The position numbers and the translations under genes are program-made. Below, piece by piece: positions 5,087 through 43,226 of a stretch of 64,000 nt of DNA; the stretch's first letter is position 1; each line of letters starts with the position of its first letter. The stretch comes from Kibdelosporangium sp. MJ126-NF4 (lineage in GTDB: Bacteria; Actinomycetota; Actinomycetes; Mycobacteriales; Pseudonocardiaceae). The stretch covers positions 369,019 to 433,018 of the forward strand of contig NZ_CDME01000010.1 of NCBI RefSeq assembly GCF_000826545.1, in the 5' to 3' direction. Under the pieces are notes generated by a model. It worked only from the letters and a program-made list of their open reading frames with translations, was not told the DNA's origin and did no database searches.

Positions 5087-6646
5087 ATGCTGGTACAACG
5101 TATTGCCAACAAGGGGATCCGGCTGGGCACGCTGCTGGAGCGGGCGGCGGCGCGCAACCCGGGCAACGTGGTGGTCCTCGACCACGACCTGGACGCGGCC
5201 CCGCACGTCGGCAGGCGATGCACGGTCGCCGAACTGGCCGACCTGGTGGACGAGTTCGCCGCCAGGCTCGCGGCGGCGGGCGTGCGGCCGCAGGGCCGGG
5301 TGGTCGTGCACAAGGCGGCCGGATTCGACATCACGCTGCTGGCGCTGGCCATCTCCCGGCTCGGTGCCGTGCCGGTGCTGCTCTCGCCCAACCTGGACGG
5401 CCCGACCGTCGTCGAACTGCTGCGCCGAGTCGACCGGCCGGTCCTGGTCACCGATCAGGCCAAACTGGACAACGACCTCCCGCCGACCGTGTTCGACGCC
5501 GTGCAGCGGGTCGTGCTGGCCACCGGCAGCCACGCACGGGCCGACGAGCTCAGCTCGTTCGCCGGTGCGCCCCGGGTCCGGCCGGTGACCAACCGGCCGA
5601 ACCTGCCCGCGCTGATCACCCACACCTCGGGCACCACCGGTATCCCCAAGCTGGCCGTGCACACCGGGGCCACCCTCAACGCACGCCACCGCCTGCAGGT
5701 CGCACTGTTCCACGCGATCCGCAAACGCCAGACCGTCGCGGTGCATGTGTCCTTTGTGCACTCCCGGATGTTCACCGCGCTGAGCGTGCCGATGTACCGC
5801 GGCTTCCCGATGCTGGTGCTCAAGGAGTCCGAGCCCGAGCACGTGGCCCGGATGTTCGCCGCCACCCGGCCCGGCTTCATCGAGGCACACCCGAACTCGT
5901 TCCTCGAATGGGAGGACCTGGCCGAACACCCGAGCAAGCCCTTGTCCAGCGTCGGCGTGTTCAGCAGCACGTTCGACGCCATCCACCCCCGCACCGTGCG
6001 GCGGATGCTGGCCGGATCCACCCGCCGCTGGCCGTTGTTCTTCCAGCTGTACGGGCAGAGCGAGTGCGGCCCGCTGATCGGCCGCGGCTACACCAAACGC
6101 AACGCGCACAAGATGGACGGCCGTTGCGTCGGCTACGCCATTCCCGGGATGACGGCGGTGCGGGTGGTGAGCAAGGACGGGCAGCGTCCGACAGAGTCCT
6201 CACCGGGCTTCATCGAGGTGCGGACCGATGGCCGGATCGTGACCTACCTCGGCGAACAGGACCGCTACGACAAGCAACGCAACGGTGGCTGGTGGCGGAT
6301 GGGCGACGTCGGCTACAAGACCAAGCTGGGCTGCCTGCACCTGCTGGACCGCGAGGTGGACGAGATCCCCGGCTTTGGCAGCACGTTGGCCGTCGAGGAC
6401 AAGCTGCTCGAACGGATCGCCACGCTGACCGAGGTGATCATCATCCCCGGCGTCGACGGGCAGCCGACCCCAGTGGTGTGCACCAAGGGCGACCGCCCGC
6501 TCGACCGAGGCGAGTGGAACCGCGCCGTGACGGGCCTGCCGACGATGGCCGAGCCGGTGCAGTGGAAGCACGGCGAGCTGCCACAGACCGCGACCACGAA
6601 GATCAAGCGATTGGAGCTGGTCAAACTGCTCCAGGCCGGTCGCTGA
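5087..6646 (+). CDS. ANL-superfamily AMP-forming ligase, CreM-like (candidate ATP-dependent diazotase)
   Basis: This 519-residue class I adenylate-forming enzyme has the P-loop TSGTTGIPK at residues 180-188, YGQSECGP with Glu326, Asp407 in WWRMGDVGY, and a C-terminal catalytic lysine candidate at about 505 (TATTKIKR). Family members normally activate carboxylates. However, CreM of cremeomycin biosynthesis and its relatives use ATP and nitrite to diazotise aromatic amines. Here the gene stop overlaps the start of a CreE-like nitrosuccinate synthase (TGATG), and a CreD-like lyase is also in the window, so the diazotase reading is attractive. The alternative is an aryl-CoA ligase acting on 3-hydroxyanthranilate. 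The start ATG has AAGGAG upstream. Confidence 0.72.
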   Translation: MLVQRIANKGIRLGTLLERAAARNPGNVVVLDHDLDAAPHVGRRCTVAELADLVDEFAARLAAAGVRPQGRVVVHKAAGFDITLLALAISRLGAVPVLLSPNLDGPTVVELLRRVDRPVLVTDQAKLDNDLPPTVFDAVQRVVLATGSHARADELSSFAGAPRVRPVTNRPNLPALITHTSGTTGIPKLAVHTGATLNARHRLQVALFHAIRKRQTVAVHVSFVHSRMFTALSVPMYRGFPMLVLKESEPEHVARMFAATRPGFIEAHPNSFLEWEDLAEHPSKPLSSVGVFSSTFDAIHPRTVRRMLAGSTRRWPLFFQLYGQSECGPLIGRGYTKRNAHKMDGRCVGYAIPGMTAVRVVSKDGQRPTESSPGFIEVRTDGRIVTYLGEQDRYDKQRNGGWWRMGDVGYKTKLGCLHLLDREVDEIPGFGSTLAVEDKLLERIATLTEVIIIPGVDGQPTPVVCTKGDRPLDRGEWNRAVTGLPTMAEPVQWKHGELPQTATTKIKRLELVKLLQAGR

Positions 6647-8607
6647 TGGGCATCGAGATCGCTGTCGTCGGCGCCGGGCCACGCGGCCTGTCGGTGCTGG
6701 AACGGTTGTGTGCCAACGAACGGATCGCTCCATCGCACCCGGCGGTCACTGTGCACGTCGTCGACCCGGTCGACGCGGGGCCGGGCGCGGTGTGGCGGAC
6801 CGACCAGTCACGGCACCTGCTGACCAACACGGTGGCGTCGCAGATCAGTGTGTACACCGACGACAGCGTCACGATGGACGGCCCGGTCGAGCAAGGGCCC
6901 AGCCTGTACGAATGGGCCAGCTCACTGGCCCTGCTGGGCCCGCTCGGCGACATCGACGACGAGATCCTCACGGAGGCACGGGCGCTCGGCCCGGACGACT
7001 ACCCGACCCGAGCGCTCTACGGCCGTTACCTGCAGCACGCGTTCGAGCGCGTGGTGGCCAACGCGCCGTCGCACATGACCATCCACGTGCACCGGTCGCA
7101 CGCGGTCGCGATCGCCGACACACATGGCGTGGTCGGTGGGCCGCAGGGAATCCGGCTACGCAACGGCACCCGGCTCAACCAACTGGACGCCGTGGTGCTC
7201 GCGCAGGGACACGTGCCCGCCAAGCTCACCCCGCGTGAGGCACGGACCGCGAGCCTGGCACGGATCTACTACCTCACGTACCTGACTCCCGCCAATCCCG
7301 CGGACGTCGACCTCGGCGGGATCGATCCGGGCGAGACCGTGCTGCTGCGCGGCCTCGGCCTGAACTTCTTCGACTACCTGGCGTTGCTCACCGTCGGCCG
7401 CGGCGGCACGTTCCGCCGTGAGGGCGAACGGCTGCGGTACGAGGCGTCTGGGCGGGAACCGCGGCTGTTCGCCTGCTCGCGGCGCGGGGTGCCGTATCAC
7501 GCCAGGGGCGAGAACCAGAAGGGAGCGTTCGGCCGGTACGTACCGCGGCTGCTGACTCCGGAGATGATCACCCGGCTGCGGGAGCGGGCCGGTCGCGGCG
7601 ACTGGGTGCGGCTGGACAAGGACCTGTGGCCGGTGATCGCCAAGGAGATCGAAAGCCTCTACTACGGCACCTGGCTCACCGCCGCCGGACGGGACGACGA
7701 GCGGTCGTCGTTCGTGTGCCAGTACCTGTCCGCCGGGCCGAAACAACAGGCCAGACTGCTCGACACGATCGGTGTCCCGCTGTCGGAACGCTGGGACTGG
7801 GACCGGATCGCCCGGCCGTACGCGGGCGTGCGGTTCACCGACCGCGCGCACTTCCACGGCTGGCTGCTGGACTACCTCGCCAACGACGTCCGGGAGGCGA
7901 AGGCAGGCAACGTCTCCGGCCCGCTCAAGGCGGCACTGGACGCCCTCCGCGACCTGCGCAACGAGATACGACTCGTGGTGGACCACGGCGGCCTGGAAGG
8001 CCAGTCCTACCGGGACCACCTGCAGGGCTGGTACACGCCGCTGAACGCGTACCTGTCCATCGGCCCGCCGGTGTCGCGGATCGAGGAGATGATCGCGCTC
8101 GTCGACGCCGGTGTCCTGGAGCTGACCGGACCCGGTACGCAGGTGGCCATCGACATGGCCGAGCCCGCGTTCGTCGCCGCGTCACCGCTGGTGCCCGGCC
8201 CGCAGGTGCGCGCGCAGGTGCTGATCGAGGCCAGACTGCCCGAACCGGACCTGCGCCGCACCGAGGACCCGTTGCTGCGGCACATGCTGGACACCGACCA
8301 GTGCCGTCCCTTCTCGATTCCCACAGCAGGGGGCGGCCTGTACGAGACCGGCGGCCTCGCGGTCACCGCACGACCCAACCGCGTGATCGACGCGCAGGGC
8401 AACACGCACCCACGCAGGTTCGCCTATGGCGTGCCGACGGAGGCAGTGCACTGGGTGACCGCCGCGGGCATCCGGCCAGGCGTCGACTCGATGACGGTCG
8501 GGGACTCCGACGCCATCGCGCGTGCCGTGCTGGCACTGGACCCGGTGGCCGACGTCCCGGCCACTGCCGTCGAGGAGAACCCCACCCCATCGCGCGTGAT
8601 CGTCTGA
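6646..8607 (+). CDS. FAD/NAD(P)-binding monooxygenase, CreE-like (candidate nitrosuccinate synthase)
   Basis: This 653-residue flavoprotein belongs to the FAD_NAD_binding (pfam13454-type) group. It has GAGPRG at residues 9-14 and the characteristic WRTDQSRHLLTNTVASQI segment near residue 60. CreE of this family oxidises the amino group of L-aspartate with NADPH and O2 to nitrosuccinate, the first step of bacterial nitrous-acid formation. The length and large insertions after the FAD domain match that group rather than simple lysine/ornithine N-hydroxylases. The ATG overlaps the stop of the CreM-like ligase, and paired hairpins terminate transcription immediately downstream. The substrate is inferred from family and context. 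Confidence 0.75.
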   Translation: MGIEIAVVGAGPRGLSVLERLCANERIAPSHPAVTVHVVDPVDAGPGAVWRTDQSRHLLTNTVASQISVYTDDSVTMDGPVEQGPSLYEWASSLALLGPLGDIDDEILTEARALGPDDYPTRALYGRYLQHAFERVVANAPSHMTIHVHRSHAVAIADTHGVVGGPQGIRLRNGTRLNQLDAVVLAQGHVPAKLTPREARTASLARIYYLTYLTPANPADVDLGGIDPGETVLLRGLGLNFFDYLALLTVGRGGTFRREGERLRYEASGREPRLFACSRRGVPYHARGENQKGAFGRYVPRLLTPEMITRLRERAGRGDWVRLDKDLWPVIAKEIESLYYGTWLTAAGRDDERSSFVCQYLSAGPKQQARLLDTIGVPLSERWDWDRIARPYAGVRFTDRAHFHGWLLDYLANDVREAKAGNVSGPLKAALDALRDLRNEIRLVVDHGGLEGQSYRDHLQGWYTPLNAYLSIGPPVSRIEEMIALVDAGVLELTGPGTQVAIDMAEPAFVAASPLVPGPQVRAQVLIEARLPEPDLRRTEDPLLRHMLDTDQCRPFSIPTAGGGLYETGGLAVTARPNRVIDAQGNTHPRRFAYGVPTEAVHWVTAAGIRPGVDSMTVGDSDAIARAVLALDPVADVPATAVEENPTPSRVIV

Positions 8608-8768: not shown

Positions 8769-9578
8769 TCAGGAGCCGCTGGAGATGAGTTCCTGGTGTA
8801 GCTGGCGCAGCTCGGCACCGGGCTCCAGGCCCAGTTCCTCGTTGAGACTGGCCCGAACGCGCTGGTAGGCGTGTAACGCGTCACCACGGCGGCCACTGCG
8901 GTCGAGCACCCGGATCAACTGTGCGTGCACTGACTCGTCCAACGGGTTCGTGTCGGCCAGTGAGCGCAGTTCACCGATCAGCTCCCGGTTCAGACCGGCC
9001 TCCATCTCGGCCTGGATCCGCAGGATGTGCGCGTTGCGCCGCTGTTCCTGCAGGTCCACGCAGAACGCCGCCAGCACCGGCCCGTGCTGCACGTTGGCCA
9101 GCGGCGGACCGGACCACAGCGCCAGCGCGGACCGCAGCGTCGCCGCCGCCTCGCTGAACCGCCGCTGCGCCAGCAACGCCCGGCCTTCCCGGCACCGCTC
9201 CTGGAACCAGTACACGTCAAGGTGTTCCGGTTCGATCCGCAACACGTACCCCAGCCTGCGGGTGACCAGCAGATGATCCGGCCGGTCGGTCAGCTCCGCG
9301 CGCCGGAACAGGTTGCGCAGCTGGTAGATGTAGGTCTGCAGGGTCGGCTGTGCGCTGCGTGGCGGCTCGTCCGGCCACAGCTCCCGCACGATCGACCCGG
9401 TCTGCACGGCCTGGCCCGCCCCAGTCAGCAGCACCGCGAGTACCTGCAACAACTTCGGTGTGGTCGGCGCGAAGTCGAGGCCCGAGTTGAGCACCCGCAC
9501 CTGGCCGAGCACCGTGAATGTCACGTCCTGTCCGGACGGGCTGTCGTTACCCCAGTCGACGAACTGCGACGGTAGCAC
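8769..9578 (-). CDS. SARP-family transcriptional activator
   Basis: This 269-residue Streptomyces antibiotic regulatory protein has an N-terminal OmpR-type winged helix (about 20-115, FTVLGQVRVLN to GYVLRIEP) and a bacterial transcriptional activation domain (about 120-265, LDVYWFQERCREG to GAELRQLHQEL). Such proteins activate biosynthetic operons by binding heptameric direct repeats near the -35 region. It is transcribed divergently from the transposase-like gene at 9832, across a region containing GAAG repeats at 11-12 bp spacing. The GTG start has AGGAAGGGG upstream. It is probably a pathway-specific activator for this cluster. Confidence 0.92.
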   Translation of the reverse strand: MLPSQFVDWGNDSPSGQDVTFTVLGQVRVLNSGLDFAPTTPKLLQVLAVLLTGAGQAVQTGSIVRELWPDEPPRSAQPTLQTYIYQLRNLFRRAELTDRPDHLLVTRRLGYVLRIEPEHLDVYWFQERCREGRALLAQRRFSEAAATLRSALALWSGPPLANVQHGPVLAAFCVDLQEQRRNAHILRIQAEMEAGLNRELIGELRSLADTNPLDESVHAQLIRVLDRSGRRGDALHAYQRVRASLNEELGLEPGAELRQLHQELISSGS

Positions 9579-9831: not shown

Positions 9832-11094
9832 ATGCGCGACGCGGTCATCGACCGGCCGCGAGTCCCGGCTCCCAGCATTGTCGGCAACGTTCCCGGCGGC
9901 GGGATCCGGGCGGCGATCCTGCACGACCTGGGCACGGCCCTGTTCGACTCACTGCCCCGCAGCGACCAGCGTGGCACCGGGATGGACTACTTGCGCGGGT
10001 TGCTGACCACCCCGGGACGCAAGTCCATTCGCAACATGGCCAGCCTGGTCGAGCGTCCCGCTGCCGACCAGAGCCTGCACCACTTCATCAACTCGTCCAC
10101 ATGGGACTGGGACGCGCTGCGCCGCGCGCTCGCGCACTACCTCGATCATCGGGCGTCGCTGCCCGCGTGGGTGGTGCGGCCGATGGTGATCCCCAAGAGC
10201 GGACCGCACTCCGTCGGCGTCGACCGGAGGTTCTCGGTGTCCAGGGGACACGCGGTGAACGCGCAGCAGGCGGTCGGTGTGTGGGGCGCCTCGACCGAGT
10301 TGAGCGGGCCGGTGAACTGGCGGCTGCGGCTGTCGGCGGCGTGGCTGGAGGACGAGTCCCGGCGCAACCAGGCCGCCATTCCCGACGACGTGCGAGGCCC
10401 GGAAACACTGGCCGAGTGCGCGGTCCGGGCGTGCCTGCGCACCGCGCGGGGCTGGGACCTGCCGGTCCGTCCGGTGGTGGCCGACGTTCCCGGAGCCGAT
10501 CCGATCACGGTCGTGCGCGGCCTGCGTGCCGCGGGCCTGCCGATGCTCGTGCGAGTCGGCCAGGACATGCCGCTGACCGTCTGCGACCCCGCGCTGTCCG
10601 GTCACACCGCCGCCGCGGTGTCCGCGGGCCGGATCGTGGCCGCGGCCAGGGACCTGCGCCGACCAGTGACGTTGCCGTGCCTCGGCACAGGCGGGATCAC
10701 CGAACTGCCACGCACCGTGCTGGCCGCGGCGGTGCGTGTCCGGATGTCCGCCAGCCTGCGCAAGACCGGCAGGGCAGGCCGATACGGCGAACTGCTGCTG
10801 CTCGCCGAGGGCGGCGACGGCCCCGGCCGCCCGGAACGGCTGTGGCTCACCGACATGGTGTCCACGAACCCGGCGGCCCTGCTGCGGCTGACCGGGCTGA
10901 CCCGCCGGGTCGACAGGGACTTCACCGAACTCGCCGAACCGGCCGGGATCCGCGACTTCGCCGGTCGCTCCTTCCGCGGCTGGCACCGGCACATCACGCT
11001 CGCGTCGGCCGCGCATTCCGTTGGCGCGCTGGCTGGTCTGGTCGAGCGGCACGGACGTTACGGGAAAGGAGACCGGGCATGGTCGCTGTGGTGA
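9832..11094 (+). CDS. IS701-like transposase-fold protein, probably catalytically inactive regulator
   Basis: The 420 residues follow the IS701/DDE_5 transposase layout: GRKSIRNMASLVE (62-74), SLHHFINSSTWDWDAL (81-96), VIPKSGPHSVGV (119-130), VNWRLRLSAAWLED and PVVADVPGADP. In active family members the segment before IPKSG carries the first catalytic Asp pair. Here it reads VVRPMVIPK, so those acidic residues are replaced by Arg-Pro at 116-117. Asp218 of the second motif remains. The gene is the first of an apparent operon with the SDR (16 bp overlap), its promoter faces the SARP gene, and no terminal inverted repeats were noticed. I infer a domesticated DNA-binding protein rather than a mobile element. 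Confidence 0.7.
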   Translation: MRDAVIDRPRVPAPSIVGNVPGGGIRAAILHDLGTALFDSLPRSDQRGTGMDYLRGLLTTPGRKSIRNMASLVERPAADQSLHHFINSSTWDWDALRRALAHYLDHRASLPAWVVRPMVIPKSGPHSVGVDRRFSVSRGHAVNAQQAVGVWGASTELSGPVNWRLRLSAAWLEDESRRNQAAIPDDVRGPETLAECAVRACLRTARGWDLPVRPVVADVPGADPITVVRGLRAAGLPMLVRVGQDMPLTVCDPALSGHTAAAVSAGRIVAAARDLRRPVTLPCLGTGGITELPRTVLAAAVRVRMSASLRKTGRAGRYGELLLLAEGGDGPGRPERLWLTDMVSTNPAALLRLTGLTRRVDRDFTELAEPAGIRDFAGRSFRGWHRHITLASAAHSVGALAGLVERHGRYGKGDRAWSLW

Positions 11095-11867: not shown

Positions 11868-12602
11868 GTGGCGACGAGGACACCGCCGGGGATCTACCAC
11901 CGCGCCGAGCTGTACGACGTGATCTACCGGGGCCGTGGCAAGGACTACCACGGCGACGCACGCGAACTGGTCAAGATCGTCAAGGAACACAACGACACCG
12001 CGTCGTCCCTTTTGGACGTCGCATGCGGCACCGGAAAACACCTGCGCCACTTCGCCGAGGAGTTCGAGCACGTTGCCGGGATCGACCTGGCCGAGGACAT
12101 GGTCCGGATCGCCGCGCGCGCCCTTCCCGGTGTCCCGGTGCACCACGGCGACATGGCCGACTTCGACCTCGGTACCCGGTTCGACGCGATCACGTGCATG
12201 TTCAGCTCGATCGGCTACCTGCCAGGAGTGTCCGAACTGGACTCGGCGCTGCGCTCCTTCGCCAGGCACCTCAACCCCGGCGGGGTGGTCGTGGTCGAGC
12301 CGTGGTGGTTTCCGGAGAAGGCGATCTCGGGACATGTCGTGAGCGACCTCGTGACCGAGGGCGACCACACGGTGTCCCGGATCTCGCACGCGGTACTCGC
12401 GGACAACGCGCACCGGATGGAGGTGCACTACGTCGTGGCCACGGCAGGCCAGGGAATCGAGCACTTCACCGACACGCATGTGCTGGCGCTGTTCACCCGT
12501 GCACAGTACGAGCACGCCTTCACCTCGGCTGGTCTGGCTGTGGAGTACCTGACCTGGGACAAACCGGGCCCGGGGCTGTTCGTCGGAACGAAGGCACGCT
12601 GA
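11868..12602 (+). CDS. dTDP-3-amino-sugar N,N-dimethyltransferase (DesVI/TylM1-like)
   Basis: This 244-residue SAM-dependent methyltransferase has LLDVACGTGKHL near residue 46. It also carries long stretches typical of DesVI/TylM1, notably YDVIYRGRGKDY, ITCMFSSIGYL, VVVEPWWFPE and HRMEVHYVVA. These enzymes dimethylate the 3-amino group of a dTDP-3-amino-3,6-dideoxyhexose. A GTG start lies 8 bp after GGAGAAAGGA. The stop overlaps the ATG of the epimerase gene, so it is coupled to sugar genes. This is one of the most specific functional assignments in the window. Confidence 0.92.
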   Translation: MATRTPPGIYHRAELYDVIYRGRGKDYHGDARELVKIVKEHNDTASSLLDVACGTGKHLRHFAEEFEHVAGIDLAEDMVRIAARALPGVPVHHGDMADFDLGTRFDAITCMFSSIGYLPGVSELDSALRSFARHLNPGGVVVVEPWWFPEKAISGHVVSDLVTEGDHTVSRISHAVLADNAHRMEVHYVVATAGQGIEHFTDTHVLALFTRAQYEHAFTSAGLAVEYLTWDKPGPGLFVGTKAR

Positions 12603-13222
12603 TGGAATCCCAGCCGTTGCGTGTGGACGGTGCGTTCGTGTTCACGCCGCCGGTCTACCGCGACGATCGGGGTTTCATCCTGGCTCCGTTCCAGGAGGGC
12701 CCGTTCGTCGACCAGATCGGCTACCCGCTGTTCCCCCTGGCGCAGACGTGCTTCAGCAGGTCTCGCCGCGGGGTGGTGCGCGGTGTGCACTACACCGCGA
12801 CCCCGCCCGGCATGGCCAAGTTCGTCTACTGTGCCCACGGCGAGATCCTGGACGTGCTGGTGGACCTGCGAGTCGGGTCGCCGACGTACGGAGCGTGGGA
12901 CAGCATCGTCCTCGACCAGAGCGACTTCCGCGCGGTGTATGTGCCGGTCGGCGTCGGACACGCGTTCGTGTCACTGGCCGACGACAGCGTGATGCACTAC
13001 ATGCTGTCAACAGGCTACTCCACGGACACCGAACTGGCGATCTCCCCGACGGACCCGGACCTCGGCCTGCCACTGGTCATCGACGCCGACCCGATCCTGT
13101 CCGAACGGGACGCCAAAGCGCCGACACTGGCCGAGGCGCAGCGGGCGGGACTGCTGCCACACTACGACAGATGCCTGGAGATCGAAGCCAAGTTCGGCCA
13201 TCCGGGCGTGCGGGAGGCGTGA
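12602..13222 (+). CDS. dTDP-4-keto-6-deoxyhexose 3,5- or 5-epimerase
   Basis: This 206-residue RmlC-cupin epimerase has RGVVRGVHYTATPPGMAKFVYC (catalytic His in GVHYT) and VYVPVGVGHAFVSL. In vancosamine-type pathways the homologue EvaD inverts C5 and yields the L-sugar. It is joined by 1-4 bp overlaps to the N,N-dimethyltransferase upstream and the ketoreductase downstream. The ATG at 12602 is favoured by coupling and by family length. Whether it epimerises C3, C5 or both cannot be read from the sequence. Confidence 0.9.
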   Translation: MESQPLRVDGAFVFTPPVYRDDRGFILAPFQEGPFVDQIGYPLFPLAQTCFSRSRRGVVRGVHYTATPPGMAKFVYCAHGEILDVLVDLRVGSPTYGAWDSIVLDQSDFRAVYVPVGVGHAFVSLADDSVMHYMLSTGYSTDTELAISPTDPDLGLPLVIDADPILSERDAKAPTLAEAQRAGLLPHYDRCLEIEAKFGHPGVREA

Positions 13223-14136
13223 TGCGGGTAGCGGTGCTCGGCGGCACGGGCTGGGTCGGCAGGCAGGCGTGCGCCGCGTTCACCCGTGGCGGCGCGGACG
13301 TCGTCGCCGTTGCCCGGCACCAGCCCGCGGACCTGCCGTATCCGTTCCACCGGCTCGACCTGGCCGACGCGACCCCCGACGACATCACCGCACTGGTGTC
13401 GCGTGACCAGGTGGACGTCGTGGTCAACGCGACCGACGCGGCCAACGCCAACGACGGCTTCCACGGCACGCCCGAGCATCTGGCCCGGGTCAACGTGGAC
13501 GCCGTGCACACCGTCCTCGACGCGCTCGCCGCCGTCCCCTGGCGGCCCAGGCTGGTCCACCTGGGCACGATCCACGAGTACGGCCCCATCACCGAGGGTA
13601 CCGCTGTCGACGAGACCGCACGACCGGATCCGACGAACGTCTACACCCGCACCAAACTCGACGGCTCGGTCGCGGTGCTGGACGCCGCACGCGAGGGCAA
13701 GGTCAACGGAGTGGTCCTGCGGATCACCCAGATCCTCGGGCCACGACCGTCTCCGGCCACGTTCCCAGGCAAACTGCTGGCGTCGCTGCGTGCGGCAACT
13801 CTCGACGAGCCCGCGTCGATACGGATCGCGCACGCCGCGCGTGACTTCGTCGACGTGCGGGACGTGGCCGACGCGGTGCTGCTCGCGGCGGGCAAACCGT
13901 TGTCCGGCAAGGTGATCAACATCGGCAGCGGGGTGGCCGTGTCGATCCGTGACCTGGTCGGGCAGTTCACCATTACAGCGGGGCTCCCGGACCATGCGGT
14001 GCGGGAGGACCCCAGCCCGGTGTCCAGTCTCGGTGCTGACTGGATGCTCGCCGACATCCGGCTGGCCGAGCGCCTGCTCGGCTGGCGCCCGCGGTTCACG
14101 CTGCGGGATTCGCTGCGAGCCATGTGGGAGAGCTGA
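13222..14136 (+). CDS. NAD(P)-dependent dTDP-hexose 4-ketoreductase (EvaE/TylD/UrdR-like)
   Basis: This 304-residue extended SDR has GGTGWVG at the N-terminus and a modified active site (THE-type: LGTIHEYG, and YTRTKLDG with the Tyr and Lys). The segment VLRITQILGPRPSP follows. Such reductases set the C4 hydroxyl as the last step before glycosyl transfer. It overlaps the epimerase stop (TGATG) and precedes the MpaB-like gene by 2 bp, so it sits in the main operon. Confidence 0.86.
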   Translation: MRVAVLGGTGWVGRQACAAFTRGGADVVAVARHQPADLPYPFHRLDLADATPDDITALVSRDQVDVVVNATDAANANDGFHGTPEHLARVNVDAVHTVLDALAAVPWRPRLVHLGTIHEYGPITEGTAVDETARPDPTNVYTRTKLDGSVAVLDAAREGKVNGVVLRITQILGPRPSPATFPGKLLASLRAATLDEPASIRIAHAARDFVDVRDVADAVLLAAGKPLSGKVINIGSGVAVSIRDLVGQFTITAGLPDHAVREDPSPVSSLGADWMLADIRLAERLLGWRPRFTLRDSLRAMWES

Positions 14137-14138
14137 CT

Positions 14139-15071
14139 ATGGGTGCCGAACAGCGATACGCCCGTCGTCGCGCGATCGAGGCGATGGACGTGCACGAGTC
14201 CTGCAGCGACATCTGGCTGCAGGACATGGCCTACGAGTTCCCGTGGGAGTGGCAGGTGGCGGGCAGCGTCGCCTTCTACGCCAGCTTCGCGCCGGTCCGG
14301 CTGGCCGAACTGCTGGTACGGACCCGTGAGCTGACTGAGAACACGGAGAAAAGGCTGGAGGACACGTCCATCCTGATGTGGGAGACCTTCCGGCACGGGG
14401 TGCGTGGGCCGGAAGGAAAAGCGGCGGTGAGACAGCTCAACCGGATCCACCGCAACGCCGTCCGGCACATCAGCGACGAGCACAGGACATGGGAGATCAC
14501 CGGGGAGGACTACCTGTTCGTGCTCGCGACCACGTTCCTGACCACGATCCGCGTGGCGCAGCGCATCACGTGGCGTCCGTTGATCGACCAGGAGCGGACC
14601 GGCGCGTACCTGCACTTCCGTGAGATCGGCGAAGTCATGGGACTCAAGGACATCCCACGGACCTACGCGGACATGGCCAGGTTCCACGACGACTACGCGG
14701 CCCGGCACATCCGGTACTCGCCGGAAGCCCGACGGCTCTACCTGGCCACCAGGGACATGATCGTGGACGTGCTGACGATGTGGCTGCCCGAGCGGTCACC
14801 GGCGTGGTTCGCTGGCCTGATGCGGCGGATCGCCGTCAGCGTCCTGCCCGCGATCGTGCCCAAGGTGTTGCGTACGGCGTTCGGCATGCGCGATCCGTCG
14901 CCGTTGCTCTCAGTGGCCGTGGGGGCCGCGATGCGGGTGCGCGGCGCTGTTGTACGCCGGATGTCGCCACGGACCGAACCGGCCATCCCGGACCGGTTCC
15001 CGACTGAGGAGTTCCCGGACGGCGACTACCGGATCGACCAGATCGGCCCGACGCACACGGTGCGCCGCTGA
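14139..15071 (+). CDS. MpaB-like/DUF2236 oxygenase (rubber-oxygenase-type heme domain)
   Basis: This 310-residue protein shows the DUF2236 pattern: a basic HRNAVRHISDEHRTW helix, EDYLFVLATTFLTTIRVA, LHFREIGEVMGL and IPRTYADMARFHDDY. The family includes latex-clearing heme protein Lcp and MpaB, which cleaves the farnesyl side chain during mycophenolic-acid synthesis. With a prenyl diphosphate synthase and a UbiA prenyltransferase in the same cluster, oxidative cleavage or oxidation of an isoprenoid chain is plausible. The preferred ATG at 14139 has GGGAGAG upstream; a GTG at 14124 is in frame. The gene ends 1 bp from a convergent LysE gene. Confidence 0.75.
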   Translation: MGAEQRYARRRAIEAMDVHESCSDIWLQDMAYEFPWEWQVAGSVAFYASFAPVRLAELLVRTRELTENTEKRLEDTSILMWETFRHGVRGPEGKAAVRQLNRIHRNAVRHISDEHRTWEITGEDYLFVLATTFLTTIRVAQRITWRPLIDQERTGAYLHFREIGEVMGLKDIPRTYADMARFHDDYAARHIRYSPEARRLYLATRDMIVDVLTMWLPERSPAWFAGLMRRIAVSVLPAIVPKVLRTAFGMRDPSPLLSVAVGAAMRVRGAVVRRMSPRTEPAIPDRFPTEEFPDGDYRIDQIGPTHTVRR

Positions 15072-19790: not shown

Positions 19791-19822
19791 CGCGCTGAGC
19801 ACGTACATGGGGTTGGTGCTGA

Positions 19823-19862: not shown

Positions 19863-19885
19863 AACGCGCTGATCGCCGCGATCAC

Positions 19886-20197: not shown

Positions 20198-20267
20198 GGC
20201 TCCAGTATGCCGCTTCGGACTCCGCCGGTCCGGTTGACCCGTTTTGCAGAGCTGCGGGCCGCGTCCA

Positions 20268-35169: not shown

Positions 35170-36972
35170 ATGGCACTGCTGGAATCGGTGCGCGGCCCGG
35201 CGCGGCTGCGTGAGCTGACGATCGATGAGCTCACCACGCTCGCCGACGAGATCCGCGCGTTCCTGATCGACCGGGTCAGCGCCACCGGCGGCCACCTCGG
35301 GCCCAACCTCGGTGTGGTGGAGCTGACCATCGCGCTGCACACCGTGTTCGACTCGCCTCGCGACCGGCTGCTGTGGGACACCGGGCACCAGTCGTACGTG
35401 CACAAGATCCTCACCGGGCGGCAGGCCGGGTTCGCCCGGCTGCGCAAGTCCGACGGCCTGTCCGGCTACCCCAGCCAGACCGAGTCCGAGCACGATCTGG
35501 TGGAGAACTCGCACGCGTCGACCGCGCTGTCGTACGCCGACGGCCTGGCCCGCGCGGACGCGCACCTCGGCCGGACCGACCGCGCGGTGGTCGCGGTGAT
35601 CGGCGACGGGGCCATGACCGGCGGCATGGCGTGGGAGGCCCTCAACAACATCGCCGGTGGCCCGGACCGGCCGTTGATCGTCGTGCTCAACGACAACGAA
35701 CGCTCCTACTCGCCCACGGTCGGCGGCTTCGCCGAGCACCTGGCGGACCTGCGTGCCGGGAACGGGCCGGGCGTGTTCGGCCGGTTCGGTCTGGACTACA
35801 TCGGCCCGGTCGACGGCCACGACATCGAGGCCGTCCAGGACGCGTTGCGCCGGGCCCGCGCGGCGGGCAGGCCGGTGGTGGTGCACGTGATCACCGCCAA
35901 GGGCCGCGGTTTCGAGCACACCGAGAACAACGAGCTGGACCTCGGGCACGCGATCAAGCCGATGGATCCGGCGACAGGCCAGGCGCTGGGCGCGTCGACG
36001 CGGTCGTTCACGTCGGTGTTCGGCGAGACCCTGATCGAGCTGGCCGAACAGCGTGACGACCTGGTCGCGATCACCGCCGCGATGACCGAGCCGACGGGCC
36101 TGCTGCCGTTGCAGCGCCGGTTCCCGAACCGTGTGGTCGACGTCGGCATCGCCGAACAGCACGCGGTCACCATGGCCGCCGGGCTGTCCATGGGCGGGGT
36201 GCACCCGGTTGTCGCGATCTACTCGACGTTCGTCAACCGGGCTCTCGACCAGTTGCTGATGGACGTGGCGCTGCACCGCCGCCCGGTGACGTTCGTGCTC
36301 GACCGGTCCGGCGTGACCGGCGACGACGGGCCGAGCCACAACGGCATGTGGGACCTCTCGGTGCTGCAGGTGGTTCCCGGCCTGCGGATCGCCGCGCCCC
36401 GCGACGGCACCCGGCTGGCCGAGCTGTTGCGTGAGGCGGTGGCGTGGTCGGAGGGCCCGACGCTGCTGCGGTTCCCCAAAGGCCCGGCCGGTGCGGACAT
36501 TCCCGCCGTGACCACGTTCGGCGGGATGGACGTGCTGCGCCGCTCCGGCTCGTTGGACGTGATGATCGTGGCGGTCGGCGCGCTGGCCGGGATGGCGCTC
36601 GCCGTCGCCGACGGCGTTGCGGCACAGGGCATCGGCGTGACCGTGGTGGACCCGCGCTGGGTCACGCCGGTCAATCCCGCGCTTGCCGACATGGCCCGCC
36701 GTCACCGGCTCGCGATCACCGTCGAGGACAACAGCCGCACCGGTGGCGTCGGCTCCGCGGTGGCGCAGACGTTGCGCGACAACGGCGTGAGCACGCCGAT
36801 GCGGGAATTCGGTATTCCACGGCGGTTCCTCGGGCACGGTTCACGGGCCGAGGTGCTCGCCGCGTGCGGCCTGACCGCGCAGGACATCTCCCGGGCCGTC
36901 GTCGAACTCGTCGCCGACCTGGACGCGGAACCGGACAAGGTGGAACTCGACGCCGAAGGGAGGACGTGGTGA
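35170..36972 (+). CDS. dxs: 1-deoxy-D-xylulose-5-phosphate synthase
   Basis: This 600-residue thiamine-diphosphate enzyme makes DXP from pyruvate and glyceraldehyde-3-phosphate, the committed step of the MEP pathway. The ThDP motif [16 protein letters not shown] lies near residue 141. The transketolase pyrimidine domain has [16 protein letters not shown], and [15 protein letters not shown] marks the active-site loop. The length is slightly shorter than the usual 620-640. The stop overlaps the ispG start. As the rate-limiting enzyme it supports dedicated isoprenoid supply for the cluster. Confidence 0.96.
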
Positions 36973-38117
36973 CCACAGTCGCCTTGGGCATGCCGAAGCC
37001 ACGTGACGACAACGACCAGCCAGCGGTGTCCGTGGCCACGCGCCGCAAGTCCCGGCAGATCATGGTCGGCCCGGTCGCGGTCGGCGGTGACGCGCCGGTG
37101 TCGGTCCAGTCGATGACCACGACCCTGACCTCCGACATCAACGCCACCCTGCAGCAGATCGCCGAGCTGACCGCGTCGGGCTGCGAGATCGTGCGGGTCG
37201 CTGTGCCGTCCGCCGATGACGCGGAGGCGTTGCCGATCATCGCCCGCAAGTCCCAGATCCCGGTGATCGCCGACATCCACTTCCAGCCGAAGTACGTCTT
37301 CGCCGCGATCGACGCGGGCTGCGCGGCGGTCCGTGTGAACCCCGGCAACATCCGCAAGTTCGACGACCAGGTCGGCGCGATCGCCCGTGCGGCGGCTGAT
37401 CGGGGAATCCCGATCCGGATCGGCGTGAACGCGGGCTCGCTCGACCCGCGCCTGCTGGAGAAACACGGCGGCGTCACCCCGGAGGCACTGGTCGAGTCCG
37501 CGCTGTGGGAGTGCTCGCTGTTCGAGGAGCACGGCTTCCAGGACATCAAGATCTCGGTCAAGCACAACGACCCCGTGGTGATGATCGAGGCGTACCGGCA
37601 GCTCGCGGCCCAGTGCGACTACGCGTTGCACCTCGGCGTGACCGAGGCGGGCCCGACCTTCCAGGGCACGATCAAGTCCGCGGTCGCGTTCGGCGCGCTG
37701 CTGGCCGAGGGCATCGGCGACACCATCCGGGTGTCGCTGTCCGCGCCGCCGGTGGAGGAGGTCAAGGTCGGCAACCAGATACTGGAGTCGCTCGGCCTGC
37801 GGCCACGCGGGCTGGACATCGTGTCCTGCCCGTCCTGCGGCCGTGCCCAGGTGGACGTGCACACGCTGGCCGAGCGGGTCAGCGCGGCCCTGGAGGGCTT
37901 CCCCGTCCCGCTGCGCGTGGCCGTGATGGGCTGTGTGGTCAACGGCCCCGGCGAGGCACGGGAAGCCGACCTCGGGGTGGCGTCCGGCAACGGCAAGGGC
38001 CAGATCTTCGTCAAGGGCAAGGTGATCAAGACCGTGCCCGAGTCGCAGATCGTGGAGACGCTGCTGGAGGAGGCCGCGCGCATCGCGGCCGAGATGGGCA
38101 TCGACATCGAAGCCTGA
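36969..38117 (+). CDS. ispG: 4-hydroxy-3-methylbut-2-en-1-yl diphosphate synthase
   Basis: IspG (GcpE) converts MEcPP to HMBPP using a [4Fe-4S] cluster. The protein of about 382 residues shows [19 protein letters not shown] near the N-terminus. The cluster cysteines are in [14 protein letters not shown] and [16 protein letters not shown]. The GTG at 36969 overlaps the dxs stop and has AAGGGAGGA upstream; a second GTG at 36966 is equally possible. It completes a partial MEP set (dxs, ispG, ispH). No dxr, ispD, ispE or ispF occurs in the window. Confidence 0.96.
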
Positions 38118-39503: not shown

Positions 39504-40487
39504 TCAGAACCCGATGTAGACGATGTTGACGGCCAGCACACAGACCACTGTTGTGCGGAACACCAGCACGCCACGGATGCGCGCCACCAGAGGAGCCTGC
39601 GGGTTGCGGACGAACCCGCCGTACTGCCGCAGCCGCAACACGATCGCGGGCAGCAGGGCGATCGGCAGCCACCACGGCACCCACCCGGCCAGCGTCGGCA
39701 CCAGGATCACCAGGATGTTCGCGGCGGTCAGCAGGCCGAGGAAGATCACGTTGCCGTGCCGGGTCCCCGAGGTCAACACCGCGACCGTGCGCCGACCGGC
39801 GGACTTGTCCCCGTCGATGTCGTTGGTGTTGGAATACCCCGCGATCATCAGCTGGCCGAACCCGAACAGCAGGCCCTCGACGAGCACCAGCGCGGGCAGT
39901 TCACCGGTGGCCAGGCCGTAGGGGGCGATCAGGAACGCCGCCGCGGAGAACAACAGCACCAGCTCGCCCAGCCCGTAGTAGCTCAGCTTGAGGCCCCACG
40001 AGTACTGCACGCTCAGTGCCAGCAACAACCCGGTGACCACCAGGATCCACGCCTGCTGGTGGTCGGTGTGCAGGATCGCGGCGGTCCACCAGCCCGCGCC
40101 CCACACCAGGCTCAGGTAGCCGTAGCGCTGCGCCTGGGCCACGGTCAACTCGCCCGTGAGCAAAGGTTTGCGCTTGAGCGGTCGCAGCTGGGTCTTGTTC
40201 GCGTCCAGGTAGTTGGCGCGGTCGCTGCCGTCCTTGATCCCGGTCACGTCGTCGAGCGTCATCACGGCGAACAGCACACCGGCTTGGCCGAGTGCGAAGA
40301 ACAGCAACGTGACCAGCGTTTCGCCGTCGGTCTTCAGCAACGGGGCGAGCGCGGTCCACGCGATGATCGGCGCCAGGTAGAAATCCAGCACGAACTGGAA
40401 CTTCACCAGTCTGGCGTAACTTCGAATCGTTCGGAGAATCCCCGGTTTCGCGGTGATCTCGGAGGAGGCATCGGTACGCGCCGTCAT
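39504..40487 (-). CDS. UbiA-family membrane prenyltransferase with atypical first Asp motif
   Basis: This 327-residue protein has about eight or nine membrane segments. It would transfer a prenyl group from prenyl diphosphate to an aromatic or other acceptor at the membrane. The second Asp-rich motif is canonical (YSNTNDIDGDKSAGRRT, Asp 223/225/227). The first reads LDDVTGIKDGSDRANYLD (Asp79-89) instead of the usual NDxxDxxxD spacing. It is divergent from the C-methyltransferase and faces the LuxR gene. It is the probable step joining the isoprenoid and aromatic halves, although MenA-like quinone functions cannot be excluded. Confidence 0.87.
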   Translation of the reverse strand: MTARTDASSEITAKPGILRTIRSYARLVKFQFVLDFYLAPIIAWTALAPLLKTDGETLVTLLFFALGQAGVLFAVMTLDDVTGIKDGSDRANYLDANKTQLRPLKRKPLLTGELTVAQAQRYGYLSLVWGAGWWTAAILHTDHQQAWILVVTGLLLALSVQYSWGLKLSYYGLGELVLLFSAAAFLIAPYGLATGELPALVLVEGLLFGFGQLMIAGYSNTNDIDGDKSAGRRTVAVLTSGTRHGNVIFLGLLTAANILVILVPTLAGWVPWWLPIALLPAIVLRLRQYGGFVRNPQAPLVARIRGVLVFRTTVVCVLAVNIVYIGF

Positions 40488-41836: not shown

Positions 41837-43226
41837 TTCTCCAGGCACTGACTCCGGGCTGCTCGCGCCGACATGGGCGGGCAGCCCGGCTGAGTCCGAG
41901 GTGACCGACGAGGCGTTCCTGCAGGCGATGCTGGACGTCGAAGCCGCGCTGGCGCGCACACAGGCCTCCCTCGGGCTGGTGCCGGACACGGCCGCGCGGG
42001 CGATCACAGCGGCCGCGCACGCGGACCGGCTGGACGTGGTCGCGCTGGCGCGGCAGGCGCGCGCGGCGGCCAACCCGGTGGTGGCGTTCGTCCCCGCCTT
42101 CACCACTGTCGTGTCCGAAGTGGATCCGGACGCGGCCGAGTACGTCCACAGGGGATCGACCAGCCAGGACATCCTCGACTCGGCGTTCATGCTCGTGTCC
42201 CGGCGGGTGCTCGGCCTCCTCGACGCGGACCTCGGGCACGTCGCGAACGCACTGGCCCGCCTGGCCGACGAGCACCGCGCGACCGTGCAGGCGGGCCGGA
42301 CGCTCACCCAACACGCGGTGCCGGTCACCTTCGGGTTGAAGGCGGCGGGCTGGCTGCACCTGGCGCTGGACGCGATCGAGCGGGTCCGTGTGGTCGCGTC
42401 CCGGTTGCCCGCGCAGCTCGGTGGCGCGGCGGGAACCCTTGCAGCCTATGCGGAATACGCCGCGATCGACGGCGACGGCGTGGACGGCGCCGACCTGGTC
42501 GCCCCCTTCGCCGCCGAGCTCGGCCTTGCCGAGCCGGTCCTGCCGTGGCACGCGGCACGCACCCCGATCGCGGACCTCGGTGCGGTGCTGGCGTTCGTCA
42601 CCGGTGCGCTCGGGAAGTTCGCGCTGGACGTGCAGACCCTGTCCCGCACCGAGATCGCCGAGGTCAGCGAACCGGCCGCGCCGGGAAGGGGAGCCTCCTC
42701 GGCGATGCCGCAGAAACGCAACCCGGTGCTGGCCACGCTGATCGTCACGGCCGCACGCCAGGTCCCCGCGCACGCGGCCATCCTGGCGCAGTCGATGCTG
42801 TCGGAGGACGAACGAGCCGGTGGCGCGTGGCACGCCGAGTGGCAGCCGCTGCGTGAGGCGCTGCGCCTCGCGGGCGGCGCGGCCCACCTCGCCGTCGAAC
42901 TCGCCGAAGGTCTGCAGGTGTATCCGGAACGGATGCTGGAGAACGTCAACCTGACCCGTGGCGAGATCGTCGCCGAACGCCTGAACGTCGCGCTGGCACC
43001 GGCATTGGGCAAGGCCGCCGCGAAGAAGATACTGGCCGGGGCGTCCCGGGAGGCCGCCGAGACCGGCAAGCCGTTGGCTGAGGTGCTGGCTGGTCGCAGC
43101 GAACTGTCCGGGCTGACCGACCGGTTGGCCGGGCTGCTCGACCCGGCAGGCTATGTCGGCGCCGCCACAGCGCTGGTGGACCGTGTCCTGGCCCGCGCCG
43201 AGGAGATGGGCGTCACGGCGTCGTAG
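41829..43226 (+). CDS. Fumarase/aspartase-superfamily lyase, CreD-like candidate nitrosuccinate lyase
   Basis: This 465-residue lyase belongs to the group often annotated 3-carboxy-cis,cis-muconate cycloisomerase (PcaB). The signature loop SSAMPQKRNP is at 290-299, and GSTSQDILDSAFML marks the first active-site region. CreD of cremeomycin biosynthesis belongs to this group and splits nitrosuccinate into fumarate and nitrite. A CreE-like and a CreM-like protein in the same cluster and the absence of protocatechuate genes favour the nitrite role. The TTG start overlaps the C-methyltransferase stop. PcaB or adenylosuccinate-lyase-like activity remains the alternative. Confidence 0.78.
   Translation: MTSSPGTDSGLLAPTWAGSPAESEVTDEAFLQAMLDVEAALARTQASLGLVPDTAARAITAAAHADRLDVVALARQARAAANPVVAFVPAFTTVVSEVDPDAAEYVHRGSTSQDILDSAFMLVSRRVLGLLDADLGHVANALARLADEHRATVQAGRTLTQHAVPVTFGLKAAGWLHLALDAIERVRVVASRLPAQLGGAAGTLAAYAEYAAIDGDGVDGADLVAPFAAELGLAEPVLPWHAARTPIADLGAVLAFVTGALGKFALDVQTLSRTEIAEVSEPAAPGRGASSAMPQKRNPVLATLIVTAARQVPAHAAILAQSMLSEDERAGGAWHAEWQPLREALRLAGGAAHLAVELAEGLQVYPERMLENVNLTRGEIVAERLNVALAPALGKAAAKKILAGASREAAETGKPLAEVLAGRSELSGLTDRLAGLLDPAGYVGAATALVDRVLARAEEMGVTAS

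What the first reader, a model, noticed from the sequence alone, without database searches (positions are those of the whole stretch)
5087..43226. Complete nitrous-acid and diazotase set split across both arms of the cluster
A CreM-like ANL ligase (5087-6646) overlaps a CreE-like flavoprotein (6646-8607), and a CreD-like fumarase-superfamily lyase lies at 41829-43226. In cremeomycin biosynthesis these three families convert aspartate to nitrosuccinate, release nitrite, and diazotise an aromatic amine. Here the obvious amine is 3-hydroxyanthranilate made by the PhzE/PhzD/SDR trio. Combining this chemistry with isoprenoid and branched-aminosugar genes fits no cluster I recognise. The product could carry a diazo or other N-N group, or lose the amine through a diazo intermediate.
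Basis: partly seen in the sequence, partly recalled or inferred. Interest (0 to 1): 0.92.

Follow-up and report, generated by a model that had tools for sequence, protein, structure and literature searches.

The report
Nitrite-to-diazo module in meroterpenoid-like cluster
The stretch encodes a bacterial pathway that appears to make nitrous acid from aspartate and use it to turn an aromatic amine into a reactive diazo intermediate of an unknown sugar-decorated, prenylated compound; in a related gene cluster the nitrous-acid genes are replaced by nitrate-reduction genes, which suggests two interchangeable ways to feed the same chemistry.

Summary
6646-8607 is an aspartate N-hydroxylase (58% to 8CP2, six tested residues kept). 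41829-43226 groups with nitrosuccinate lyase CreD in a tree that leaves out PcaB. 5087-6646 is a CreM-type ANL enzyme, not an AvaA6 orthologue. The 3-hydroxyanthranilate trio is real: PhzD 965-1618, PhzE 1621-3519, DhbA-like SDR 11088-11840.

The cluster recurs in Kibdelosporangium persicum and, without CreD, in K. phytohabitans. New here: union with MEP/UbiA prenyl genes and TDP-sugar genes, and a fused quinone-reductase/SRPBCC protein.

The strongest result came from surveying the ANL family (249 + 297 genomes). Of 67 places in the window's clade, 53 have a nitrite source within 9 kb: CreD/CreE (28), NarK/NasA nitrate reduction (13), or both (12). One related cluster (G132) shares the prenyl, 3-HAA and part of the sugar genes but has NarK-NasA; its genome gave no CreE match and no lyase above 45%. 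In four genomes checked, the linked NasA is an extra copy. This supports a nitrite-using diazotase with interchangeable supplies. No chemistry was tested; product and fate of the N-N bond are unknown.

The parts
46..933 (+). DegT/DnrJ/EryC1/StrS aminotransferase, N-terminus cut by the window edge; probably for the amino sugar, a ring aminotransferase is the alternative
   Evidence: Pfam PF01041 from profile position 68, 293.8 bits; 80-86% identical homologues in K. persicum, K. phytohabitans, G057 and G132
965..1618 (+). PhzD-like isochorismatase (ADIC to DHHA)
   Evidence: PF00857, 128.5 bits; no NCBIfam match at 1e-15
1621..3519 (+). PhzE-like ADIC synthase (chorismate-binding plus glutamine amidotransferase); start inferred, ORF opens at 1330
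   Evidence: PF00425 and PF00117
3523..5073 (+). fusion of quinone oxidoreductase-type MDR (residues 1-325) and SRPBCC domain (about 335-516); proposed partner of the diazotase
   Evidence: PF00107/PF08240 and PF10604; by simple gene calls fused in 3 of 31 loci that hold both (window, K. persicum, K. phytohabitans), separate in 28; loci L135-L166 not examined for this
5087..6646 (+). ANL-superfamily ligase, predicted ATP-dependent nitrite-using aryl diazotase
6646..8607 (+). CreE-family L-aspartate N-hydroxylase / nitrosuccinate synthase
8769..9578 (-). SARP regulator
   Evidence: PF03704 BTAD
9832..11094 (+). IS701-type transposase-like gene, kept at the same place in K. persicum and K. phytohabitans; pzm10 is also a transposase
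   Evidence: NF033540, 295.7 bits
11088..11840 (+). DhbA-type SDR, predicted DHHA to 3-hydroxyanthranilate dehydrogenase
   Evidence: TIGR04316 334.4 bits, cut-off 300; located
11868..12602 (+). SAM methyltransferase
   Evidence: PF13649
12599..13222 (+). RmlC-type sugar 3,5-epimerase (start approximate)
   Evidence: PF00908, 165.3 bits, on the longer ORF 12023-13222
13219..14136 (+). NDP-sugar epimerase/ketoreductase (extended SDR)
   Evidence: PF01370, 128 bits, on the longer ORF 12748-14136
14124..15071 (+). MPAB/Lcp-type oxygenase
   Evidence: PF09995, 69.1 bits
16337..17140 (-). PhyH-type dioxygenase
   Evidence: PF05721
17059..18453 (+). EryCIII-type glycosyltransferase
   Evidence: PF06722/PF21036
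18450..19790 (+). flavin amine oxidase-type oxidoreductase
   Evidence: PF01593; 63% homologue next to NarK in the related cluster L088
26662..28269 (-). MFS exporter
   Evidence: PF07690
28295..28939 (-). NADPH-dependent FMN reductase
   Evidence: PF03358
28984..32226 (+). large SARP-type regulator
   Evidence: PF03704, PF00931, PF13424
33143..34087 (+). IspH (LytB), MEP pathway
   Evidence: PF02401
34116..35156 (+). short-chain polyprenyl diphosphate synthase
   Evidence: PF00348; best NCBIfam model NF042416 farnesyl/geranyl-PP synthase, 210.6 bits, below cut-off
35170..36972 (+). DXS, MEP pathway
   Evidence: PF13292
36990..38117 (+). IspG (GcpE), MEP pathway (start approximate)
   Evidence: PF04551, on the longer ORF 36444-38117
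39504..40487 (-). UbiA-family prenyltransferase
   Evidence: PF01040
40541..41836 (+). sugar C-methyltransferase
   Evidence: PF08421, PF08484
41829..43226 (+). CreD-family nitrosuccinate lyase
43213..44106 (-). RmlA glucose-1-phosphate thymidylyltransferase
   Evidence: TIGR01207 427.8 bits, cut-off 360.65

Best explanation
A nitrite-dependent aryl-diazotisation module inside a prenylated, glycosylated 3-hydroxyanthranilate-derived natural-product cluster. Steps: (1) PhzE, PhzD and the SDR turn chorismate into 3-hydroxyanthranilate, an o-aminophenol (inferred from families; the same set is proposed for 3-HAA in pzm). (2) The CreE-like enzyme oxidises L-aspartate to nitrosuccinate and the CreD-like lyase releases nitrous acid plus fumarate (inferred from homology, kept residues and tree). 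(3) The ANL ligase uses ATP and nitrite to diazotise the amine of 3-HAA or a close derivative, giving an o-diazoquinone (inferred from family, genomic linkage to two unrelated nitrite sources, and linkage to PhzE). (4) The fused quinone-reductase/SRPBCC protein encoded directly upstream acts on the diazo product, either by hydride replacement with loss of N2 or by preparing it for coupling (weakest step; about 50:50 between loss and retention). (5) The core is prenylated by UbiA with a prenyl chain from the in-cluster MEP enzymes and prenyl synthase, glycosylated with a C-methylated amino sugar, and exported (inferred; order unknown; no separate 4,6-dehydratase gene was identified).
For: CreE and CreD identity. 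Linkage: clade of 67 ANL places (support 0.92), 53 with CreD/CreE and/or NarK/NasA within 9 kb (28 Cre only, 13 Nas only, 12 both, 14 none); leaving out the window and 13 places found by pattern search, 43 of the 53 places from the two genome surveys. Sister ANL clades serve as internal control: NarK/NasA beside 0 of 16 and 0 of 25; in the remaining 13 places, 2. Replacement inside a related cluster: G132 has UbiA, IspG, DXS, prenyl synthase, IspH, DAHPS, PhzD, PhzE, DegT, SDR, RmlC, glycosyltransferase, ANL, SRPBCC, MDR and NarK-NasA-two FAD reductases, no CreE match at E<=1e-40 and no lyase closer than 45%. The nitrate set is an extra copy in the four genomes checked (G132, G057, G250, G251): each also has a NasA within 10 kb of a full NirB elsewhere. 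The linked FAD proteins match only the front part of NirB; those of L088 and L007 have no siroheme domain. Linkage to the amine: PhzE match in 24 of 24 genomes tested, within 36 kb on the same contig in 20. Family function: a sister clade of 16 holds 15 places beside a type III PKS; the NapB5 paper says the diazo-forming enzyme is conserved in naphthoquinone meroterpenoid clusters (PMC12670698, passages); that the two are the same is my inference.
Against: No assay. 14 of 67 clade places have no nitrite source within 9 kb, 10 of them with at least 7 kb of flank on both sides. The ANL is far from the only NCBIfam diazotase model that matched (96.5 bits against 975) and scores slightly higher with a fatty-acid-CoA ligase model; identity to CreM itself was not computed. 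CreD is half a bit under its model's cut-off, and PcaB 1re5 shares 10 of the 11 CreD positions compared with it, all but L170. K. phytohabitans has lost CreD from the cluster while keeping CreE, though it has two other CreD matches. G132 gave no match for RmlA, the C-methyltransferase or the sugar epimerase in the 98 kb looked at, so its product must differ in part. The substrate of the ANL is inferred from gene neighbours only.
Confidence: 0.78

Rival explanations
1. The ANL enzyme is an ordinary aryl-acid:CoA or carrier-protein ligase that activates the carboxylate of 3-HAA, and nitrite from CreE/CreD serves another step (for example nitration or nitrosation elsewhere, or a small nitro compound).
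For: ANL superfamily includes many CoA ligases; the best NCBIfam match is a fatty-acid-CoA ligase model, 118.1 bits, with AvaA6 diazotase second, 96.5 bits; the adenylation glutamate and lysine are kept in all 121 relatives aligned.
Against: The gene is joined to CreE by a one-base overlap and lies beside nitrite sources of two unrelated kinds at 53 of 67 clade places; in the window no other ANL, PKS or NRPS gene was found among the 60 further ORFs scanned with Pfam, though ORFs under 120 aa, such as small carrier proteins, were not scanned.
Confidence: 0.12
2. The amine that is diazotised is not the 3-HAA amine but a second one put on the ring by the DegT aminotransferase (oxidative transamination as proposed for 8-aminoflaviolin and penzonemycin), so 3-HAA nitrogen is kept.
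For: DegT is well conserved (80-86%) in the four related clusters; PMC9323291 proposes a transamination before diazotisation, by an unknown enzyme.
Against: A DegT of at least 60% identity lies within 9 kb of only 4 of 67 clade ANLs, the window among them (that of G057 lies further off), whereas PhzE is general; the DegT scores best with sugar aminotransferase models, though below their cut-offs (PseC); DegT proteins beside the type III PKS-linked ANLs are only 27-32% alike.
Confidence: 0.2
3. CreE/CreD make nitrite that is not used in the cluster's product: the pair is a generic nitrite source that happens to lie here.
For: CreD-type lyases are common in the family (68 of 249 genomes at E<=1e-100) and CreD is lost from the K. 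phytohabitans cluster.
Against: Conservation of both genes in the K. persicum cluster, linkage of CreD/CreE to 40 of 67 clade ANLs, and nitrate-reduction genes in the related G132 and G057 clusters that lack them.
Confidence: 0.06

Closest known systems
Penzonemycin (pzm) cluster, Streptomyces sp. SCSIO 40020 (PMC9323291)
   Same: PhzE, PhzD, DhbA-type SDR, DAHP synthase (in the window's relatives), transposase, CreD, CreE, quinone reductase, CreM homologue and SRPBCC protein together; 3-HAA core
   Different: pzm has acetolactate synthase, a second acyl-CoA ligase, N-acetyltransferase and VOC protein, and no prenyl or sugar genes in its table; here quinone reductase and SRPBCC are one protein, and MEP, UbiA and TDP-sugar genes are added. 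Pzm sequences were not compared directly
Cremeomycin (cre): CreE, CreD, CreM (PMC11705231, section 4.2)
   Same: aspartate-nitrosuccinate pathway plus ANL diazotase acting on an ortho-hydroxy aromatic amine
   Different: cremeomycin's amine is 3-amino-2-hydroxy-4-methoxybenzoate; that it is not made by PhzE/PhzD is recalled
Napyradiomycin/furaquinocin/naphterpin-type naphthoquinone meroterpenoids (NapB4 and relatives; PMC12670698, PMC11705231)
   Same: homologous ANL 'diazo-forming enzyme' in a prenylated aromatic pathway
   Different: those cores are type III PKS tetrahydroxynaphthalene; the window gave no match to such a PKS and has 3-HAA genes; the PKS-linked ANLs form a separate clade
Avenalumic/p-coumaric acid (ava, cma): AvaA6/CmaA6 diazotase and AvaA7 (PMC10777205)
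   Same: ANS pathway plus ANL diazotase; possible removal of the amine as N2
   Different: window ANL is not an AvaA6 orthologue; no PKS found among the ORFs scanned; the reductant here would be a quinone-reductase-type MDR
Alanosine-type nitrite supply
   Same: an alternative nitrous acid route is mentioned for alanosine in PMC10777205, and possible use of nitrite and nitrate reductases in PMC12154649 (passages)
   Different: there described as alternative or non-dedicated; in the window's relatives a NarK-NasA-reductase set sits inside the cluster

Membership tests
Nitrosuccinate lyase (CreD) | falls with CreD, not PcaB, in a tree | tested here: met
   clade of 71 with 5xny and all 66 CreE-adjacent lyases, support 0.92; 1re5, 3c8t and two K. 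persicum lyases without CreE fall outside
Nitrosuccinate lyase (CreD) | fingerprint E49/H118/D125/H253/R341 and loop SSxMPxKRNP (PMC13411527, passages) | tested here: met
   all 19 positions compared are identical to ScCreD; but PcaB 1re5 shares 10 of the 11 compared with it, so this alone does not exclude PcaB
Nitrosuccinate lyase (CreD) | NCBIfam NF052556 cut-off 650 bits | tested here: inconclusive
   649.5 bits, best of all models; TIGR02426 PcaB is passed by 0.65 bits
Nitrosuccinate lyase (CreD) | nitrite release from nitrosuccinate | not testable with these tools
   -
Aspartate N-hydroxylase (CreE/FzmM) | sequence relation to 8CP2 and its residues W51, R266, R409, R412, N413, V571 | tested here: met
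   57.9% identity over 592 positions, all six residues kept; peripheral R593 kept, R597 replaced by A
Aspartate N-hydroxylase (CreE/FzmM) | linked CreD | tested here: met
   same cluster, 33 kb apart; split likewise in K. persicum; CreD deleted in K. phytohabitans
CreM-type ANL diazotase | conserved Mg/ATP glutamate (E352 in CreM per PMC11705231) and the C-terminal adenylation lysine | tested here: met
   Glu of YGQSE (E326) and K505 invariant in 121 of 121; that E326 equals CreM E352 is inferred from the motif; other ANL enzymes share these residues, so this is not specific
CreM-type ANL diazotase | genomic linkage to a nitrite source | tested here: met
   53 of 67 clade places
CreM-type ANL diazotase | AvaA6 equivalog model | tested here: not met
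   96.5 bits against 975; so not filed as AvaA6
CreM-type ANL diazotase | direct similarity to CreM | not tested
   CreM's sequence was not obtained
CreM-type ANL diazotase | ATP- and nitrite-dependent diazo formation | not testable with these tools
   -
Penzonemycin-type cluster | 3-HAA genes plus CreD, CreE, CreM homologue, quinone reductase, SRPBCC | tested here: met
   all present in the window; DAHP synthase lies left of DegT in K. persicum and K. phytohabitans, outside the window
Penzonemycin-type cluster | acetolactate synthase and second acyl-CoA ligase (Pzm16, Pzm17) | tested here: not met
   none among the 60 further ORFs scanned with Pfam; the part left of the window is not covered
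Naphthoquinone meroterpenoid cluster | type III PKS (THN synthase) | tested here: not met
   no tblastn match in the window

The most novel reading that the evidence does not exclude
Aryl-diazotase clusters of the 3-HAA type draw nitrite from two interchangeable, dedicated supplies: the aspartate-nitrosuccinate pair (CreE/CreD) or a private nitrate transporter plus NasA plus two flavoprotein reductases, a duplicate of the assimilatory system without its siroheme nitrite reductase. Close relatives of the window's cluster exist in both versions, so secondary metabolism has turned inorganic nitrate directly into a reagent for N-N bond formation, and the window makes a diazo-derived prenylated aminosugar product of a class not yet described.
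Probability: 0.6. Interest if true: 0.82.

Novelty: new variant of a known kind. Interest (0 to 1): 0.72.

Why it matters
It gives natural swap pairs that make the nitrite source of N-N bond enzymes directly testable, and may help with the question raised in PMC10777205 of where diazotase clusters without CreE/CreD get nitrite. It also points to a widespread 3-HAA-linked diazotase family (67 places sampled) for which I know of one described product family (penzonemycins), and to a cluster type joining diazo chemistry with prenyl and amino-sugar genes whose product is unknown.

Tried and rejected
Rejected: PcaB identity for 41829; AvaA6 orthology; a THN-derived meroterpenoid core (no type III PKS match); my first impression that no SDR is present (it lies in a gap after the transposase; found, confirmed). 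PhzD was also missed at first (found). Led nowhere: PMC11969235 (furaquinocin reductive deamination), which looks the most relevant enzyme paper, is not held, so I know of it only through citations in PMC12670698 and PMC12814520. CreM's and Pzm18's own sequences were not obtained, so there is no direct alignment. MDR and SRPBCC function was not resolved. No structure prediction was run. The left edge of the cluster lies outside the window and no genome is held for it; its kinship to Kibdelosporangium is inferred from 77-90% DNA identity to K. phytohabitans and K. persicum over most of the cluster.

Sampling: the two surveys drew 249 and 297 genomes from larger groups, and the family names Pseudonocardiaceae and Streptomycetaceae are inferred from the centre genomes. 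Of the listed ANL matches I fetched 42 of 47 and 65 of 96, in both cases all of at least 59% identity and only a part of the rest. Places are not independent: related genomes and in-genome duplicates are counted apart. One identical sequence was dropped. L001 (duplicate of L023), L018-L021 and L026-L054 (short CreD loci) were left out of the ANL neighbour count. Labels used fixed identity thresholds, 'Cre' means CreD or CreE, 'Nas' NasA or NarK; in the parsimony count 'both' and 'none' were read as either. The 26 ligase-linked NasA sequences include two identical ones and one from a locus whose ligase is outside the window's clade; the split NasA of L103 was not included.

Papers: most were seen as listings only. 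Passages were seen of PMC12670698, PMC12814520, PMC10777205, PMC9323291 (with gene table), PMC10404684, PMC13411527 and PMC12154649; section 4.2 of PMC11705231 was read whole.


Full report
WHAT IS THERE. The three genes of the finding are open at the stated coordinates. The ligase and the flavoprotein share one base (TGATG at 6646), and the lyase overlaps the upstream sugar C-methyltransferase by 8 bases. Pfam and NCBIfam scans give a cluster from the left window edge to about 44.1 kb: DegT aminotransferase (cut by the edge), PhzD, PhzE, a fused quinone-oxidoreductase/SRPBCC protein, the ANL ligase, CreE, SARP, IS701-type transposase, DhbA-type SDR, methyltransferase, RmlC, sugar epimerase, MPAB/Lcp oxygenase, PhyH oxygenase, EryCIII-type glycosyltransferase, flavin amine oxidase; then, after a stretch absent from both relatives, MFS, FMN reductase, large SARP, IspH, prenyl synthase, DXS, IspG, LuxR, UbiA, C-methyltransferase, CreD, RmlA.

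THE TWO NITRITE GENES. CreE: 57.9% identical over 592 positions to 8CP2, which PMC10404684 (passages) describes as an L-aspartate N-hydroxylase; W51, R266, R409, R412, N413 and V571 of that structure are kept, the peripheral R597 is not. CreD: 485 bits to CreD 5xny against 284 to PcaB 1re5; best NCBIfam model nitrosuccinate lyase at 649.5 bits, half a bit under its cut-off, while TIGR02426 PcaB is passed by less than one bit. All 19 CreD positions compared are identical, but the PcaB structure shares 10 of the 11 compared with it, so residues alone do not separate them. A tree of 75 lyases does: the window protein, 5xny and all 66 lyases that lie beside a CreE gene form one clade of 71 (support 0.92) that leaves out 1re5, 3c8t and two K. 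persicum lyases without CreE. No tree of CreE against lysine N-hydroxylases was built; no such enzyme matched in the PDB search at E<=0.001.

THE LIGASE. It is an ANL enzyme with the adenylation glutamate and lysine invariant in 121 of 121 places aligned. It is far from the AvaA6 diazotase model, which is nevertheless its second-best NCBIfam match. Its nearest relatives are 93% (K. phytohabitans), 86% (K. persicum), 72% and 71% identical; below those come many actinomycete proteins at about 65%. Surveys found the family (E<=1e-100) in 37 of 249 Pseudonocardiaceae genomes and (E<=1e-120) in 80 of 297 Streptomycetaceae genomes. A FastTree tree of 121 places has a clade of 67 with the window (support 0.92), a clade of 16 of which 15 lie beside a type III PKS, a clade of 25 of which 18 lie beside an ADC-synthase-like gene, and 13 others. 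The clade of 16 looks like naphthoquinone meroterpenoid clusters; the NapB5 paper (PMC12670698, passages) says a diazo-forming enzyme is conserved in those clusters, and the N-N review (PMC11705231, section 4.2) names NapB4 as a CreM homologue (43%). That these 16 are NapB4 orthologues is my inference from gene neighbours.

NITRITE SOURCES FOLLOW THE LIGASE. In the window's clade, within 9 kb, 28 places have CreD and/or CreE only, 13 NarK and/or NasA only, 12 both, 14 neither; five switches between the two sources by parsimony. Without the window and the 13 places found only by pattern search the numbers are 25, 7, 11 and 10 of 53. The clades of 16 and 25 have NarK/NasA at none and CreD/CreE at 3 and 5; the 13 others have NarK/NasA at 2 and CreD/CreE at 6. 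NarK matches nitrate/nitrite MFS transporter models and NasA assimilatory nitrate reductase models, both below the curated cut-offs, and NasA has molybdopterin domains. The two flavoproteins beside them match only the front part of NirB (1-465 and 1-395 of 794 in L088) and, in L088 and L007, have no siroheme domain. In four genomes with such a set (G132, G057, G250, G251) a second NasA lies elsewhere, within 10 kb of a full NirB; K. persicum and K. phytohabitans, which have the CreE version, show only the NasA beside NirB, apart from one 36% match in K. persicum. In a tree the six NirB-linked NasA form one group (support 0.98) apart from the 26 ligase-linked ones, whose own inner order is weakly supported. 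So the linked set can make nitrite from nitrate but, by gene content, not reduce it further; the full NirB elsewhere could still do so.

THE SAME KIND OF CLUSTER IN TWO VERSIONS. K. persicum carries the window cluster with 63-94% protein identity (queries taken from K. persicum itself left out) and CreD in the same place; K. phytohabitans carries it too, but CreD is deleted between the C-methyltransferase and RmlA while CreE is kept at 89-90%; two other CreD matches exist in its genome. It has no CreE at E<=1e-40 and no lyase above 45%. G057 has a related cluster with DegT, RmlA, RmlC, epimerase and glycosyltransferase matches but no prenyl-gene matches in the 99 kb looked at, also with the nitrate set, without CreE and with no lyase above 46%.

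THE AMINE. In 24 genomes with window-clade ligases (chosen mostly because no PhzE lay within 9 kb), a PhzE match was found in all 24: within 36 kb on the same contig in 20, only on other contigs in 4. Most of these genomes also have a second, more distant PhzE-like gene, so the nearness rather than the mere presence is the evidence. Together with the 21 of 67 places that have PhzE within 9 kb this makes 3-HAA, an o-aminophenol, the best candidate for the substrate. The penzonemycin cluster (PMC9323291, passages and gene table) has the same set and a 3-HAA core. Its authors propose a transamination before diazotisation, so a second ring amine is a live alternative.

MECHANISM. Shown by sequence: family membership, conservation, linkage and replacement. 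Inferred: aspartate to nitrosuccinate to nitrite; ATP-dependent diazotisation of 3-HAA or a derivative; action of the MDR-SRPBCC fusion on the diazo product; prenylation and glycosylation. The fusion (3 of 31 loci holding both; separate in 28 by simple gene calls) suggests that the two proteins work on the same intermediate. Because penzonemycins keep the N-N bond and pzm also has both proteins, their presence does not tell whether N2 is lost.

NOVELTY. The diazo module is a known kind (pzm, cre). I saw no description of its combination with prenyl and aminosugar genes, or of a nitrate-reduction set in exchange for CreE/CreD, in the listings of my ten paper searches, which cover open-licence PMC papers only and were mostly seen as titles and abstract beginnings. 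PMC10777205 names an alternative nitrous acid route (as reported for alanosine) as one possibility for ava-type clusters lacking avaE and avaD, so nitrite from other sources is not a new idea; the physical embedding and replacement pattern are what appear new.

Noticed in passing
window 19778-26604: About 6.8 kb (RNA ligase-like, APH kinase, two genes without Pfam match, HTH, aldo/keto reductase) without a DNA match at this place in the two Kibdelosporangium relatives; GC somewhat lower; looks like a strain-specific insert splitting the cluster.
   Followed up: partly
window 15073-15711: LysE-type exporter gene in a stretch of about 1.3 kb with no DNA match at this place in K. persicum or K. 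phytohabitans.
   Followed up: no
L077:7863-7934: K. phytohabitans has lost nearly the whole CreD gene from the cluster (about 1.3 kb) but keeps CreE; five other CreE-like matches (36-69%) and two other CreD matches are elsewhere in its genome.
   Followed up: partly
window 9832-11094: IS701-type transposase-like gene kept at the same position in three Kibdelosporangium-type clusters, within 9 kb of 8 of 67 clade ligases, and listed as pzm10; a domesticated role is possible.
   Followed up: no
L078, L058, L133: A more distant ligase group (52-53%) with its own PhzE, PhzD, SDR and SRPBCC, L078 also with CreE/CreD: a second possible 3-HAA diazotase lineage.
   Followed up: no
L104, L105, L154, L153: Two clade ligases in the same cluster, flanking CreE/CreD in L104, L105 and L154 and without CreE/CreD nearby in L153, suggesting two diazotisations or a divided task.
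   Followed up: no
window 14124-15071: MPAB/Lcp-type oxygenase in a prenyl cluster; the fungal MpaB cleaves a farnesyl chain (recalled), so side-chain shortening is conceivable.
   Followed up: no
window 50693-54517: Large protein combining M4 and M28 peptidase domains and a P-domain, outside the cluster.
   Followed up: no
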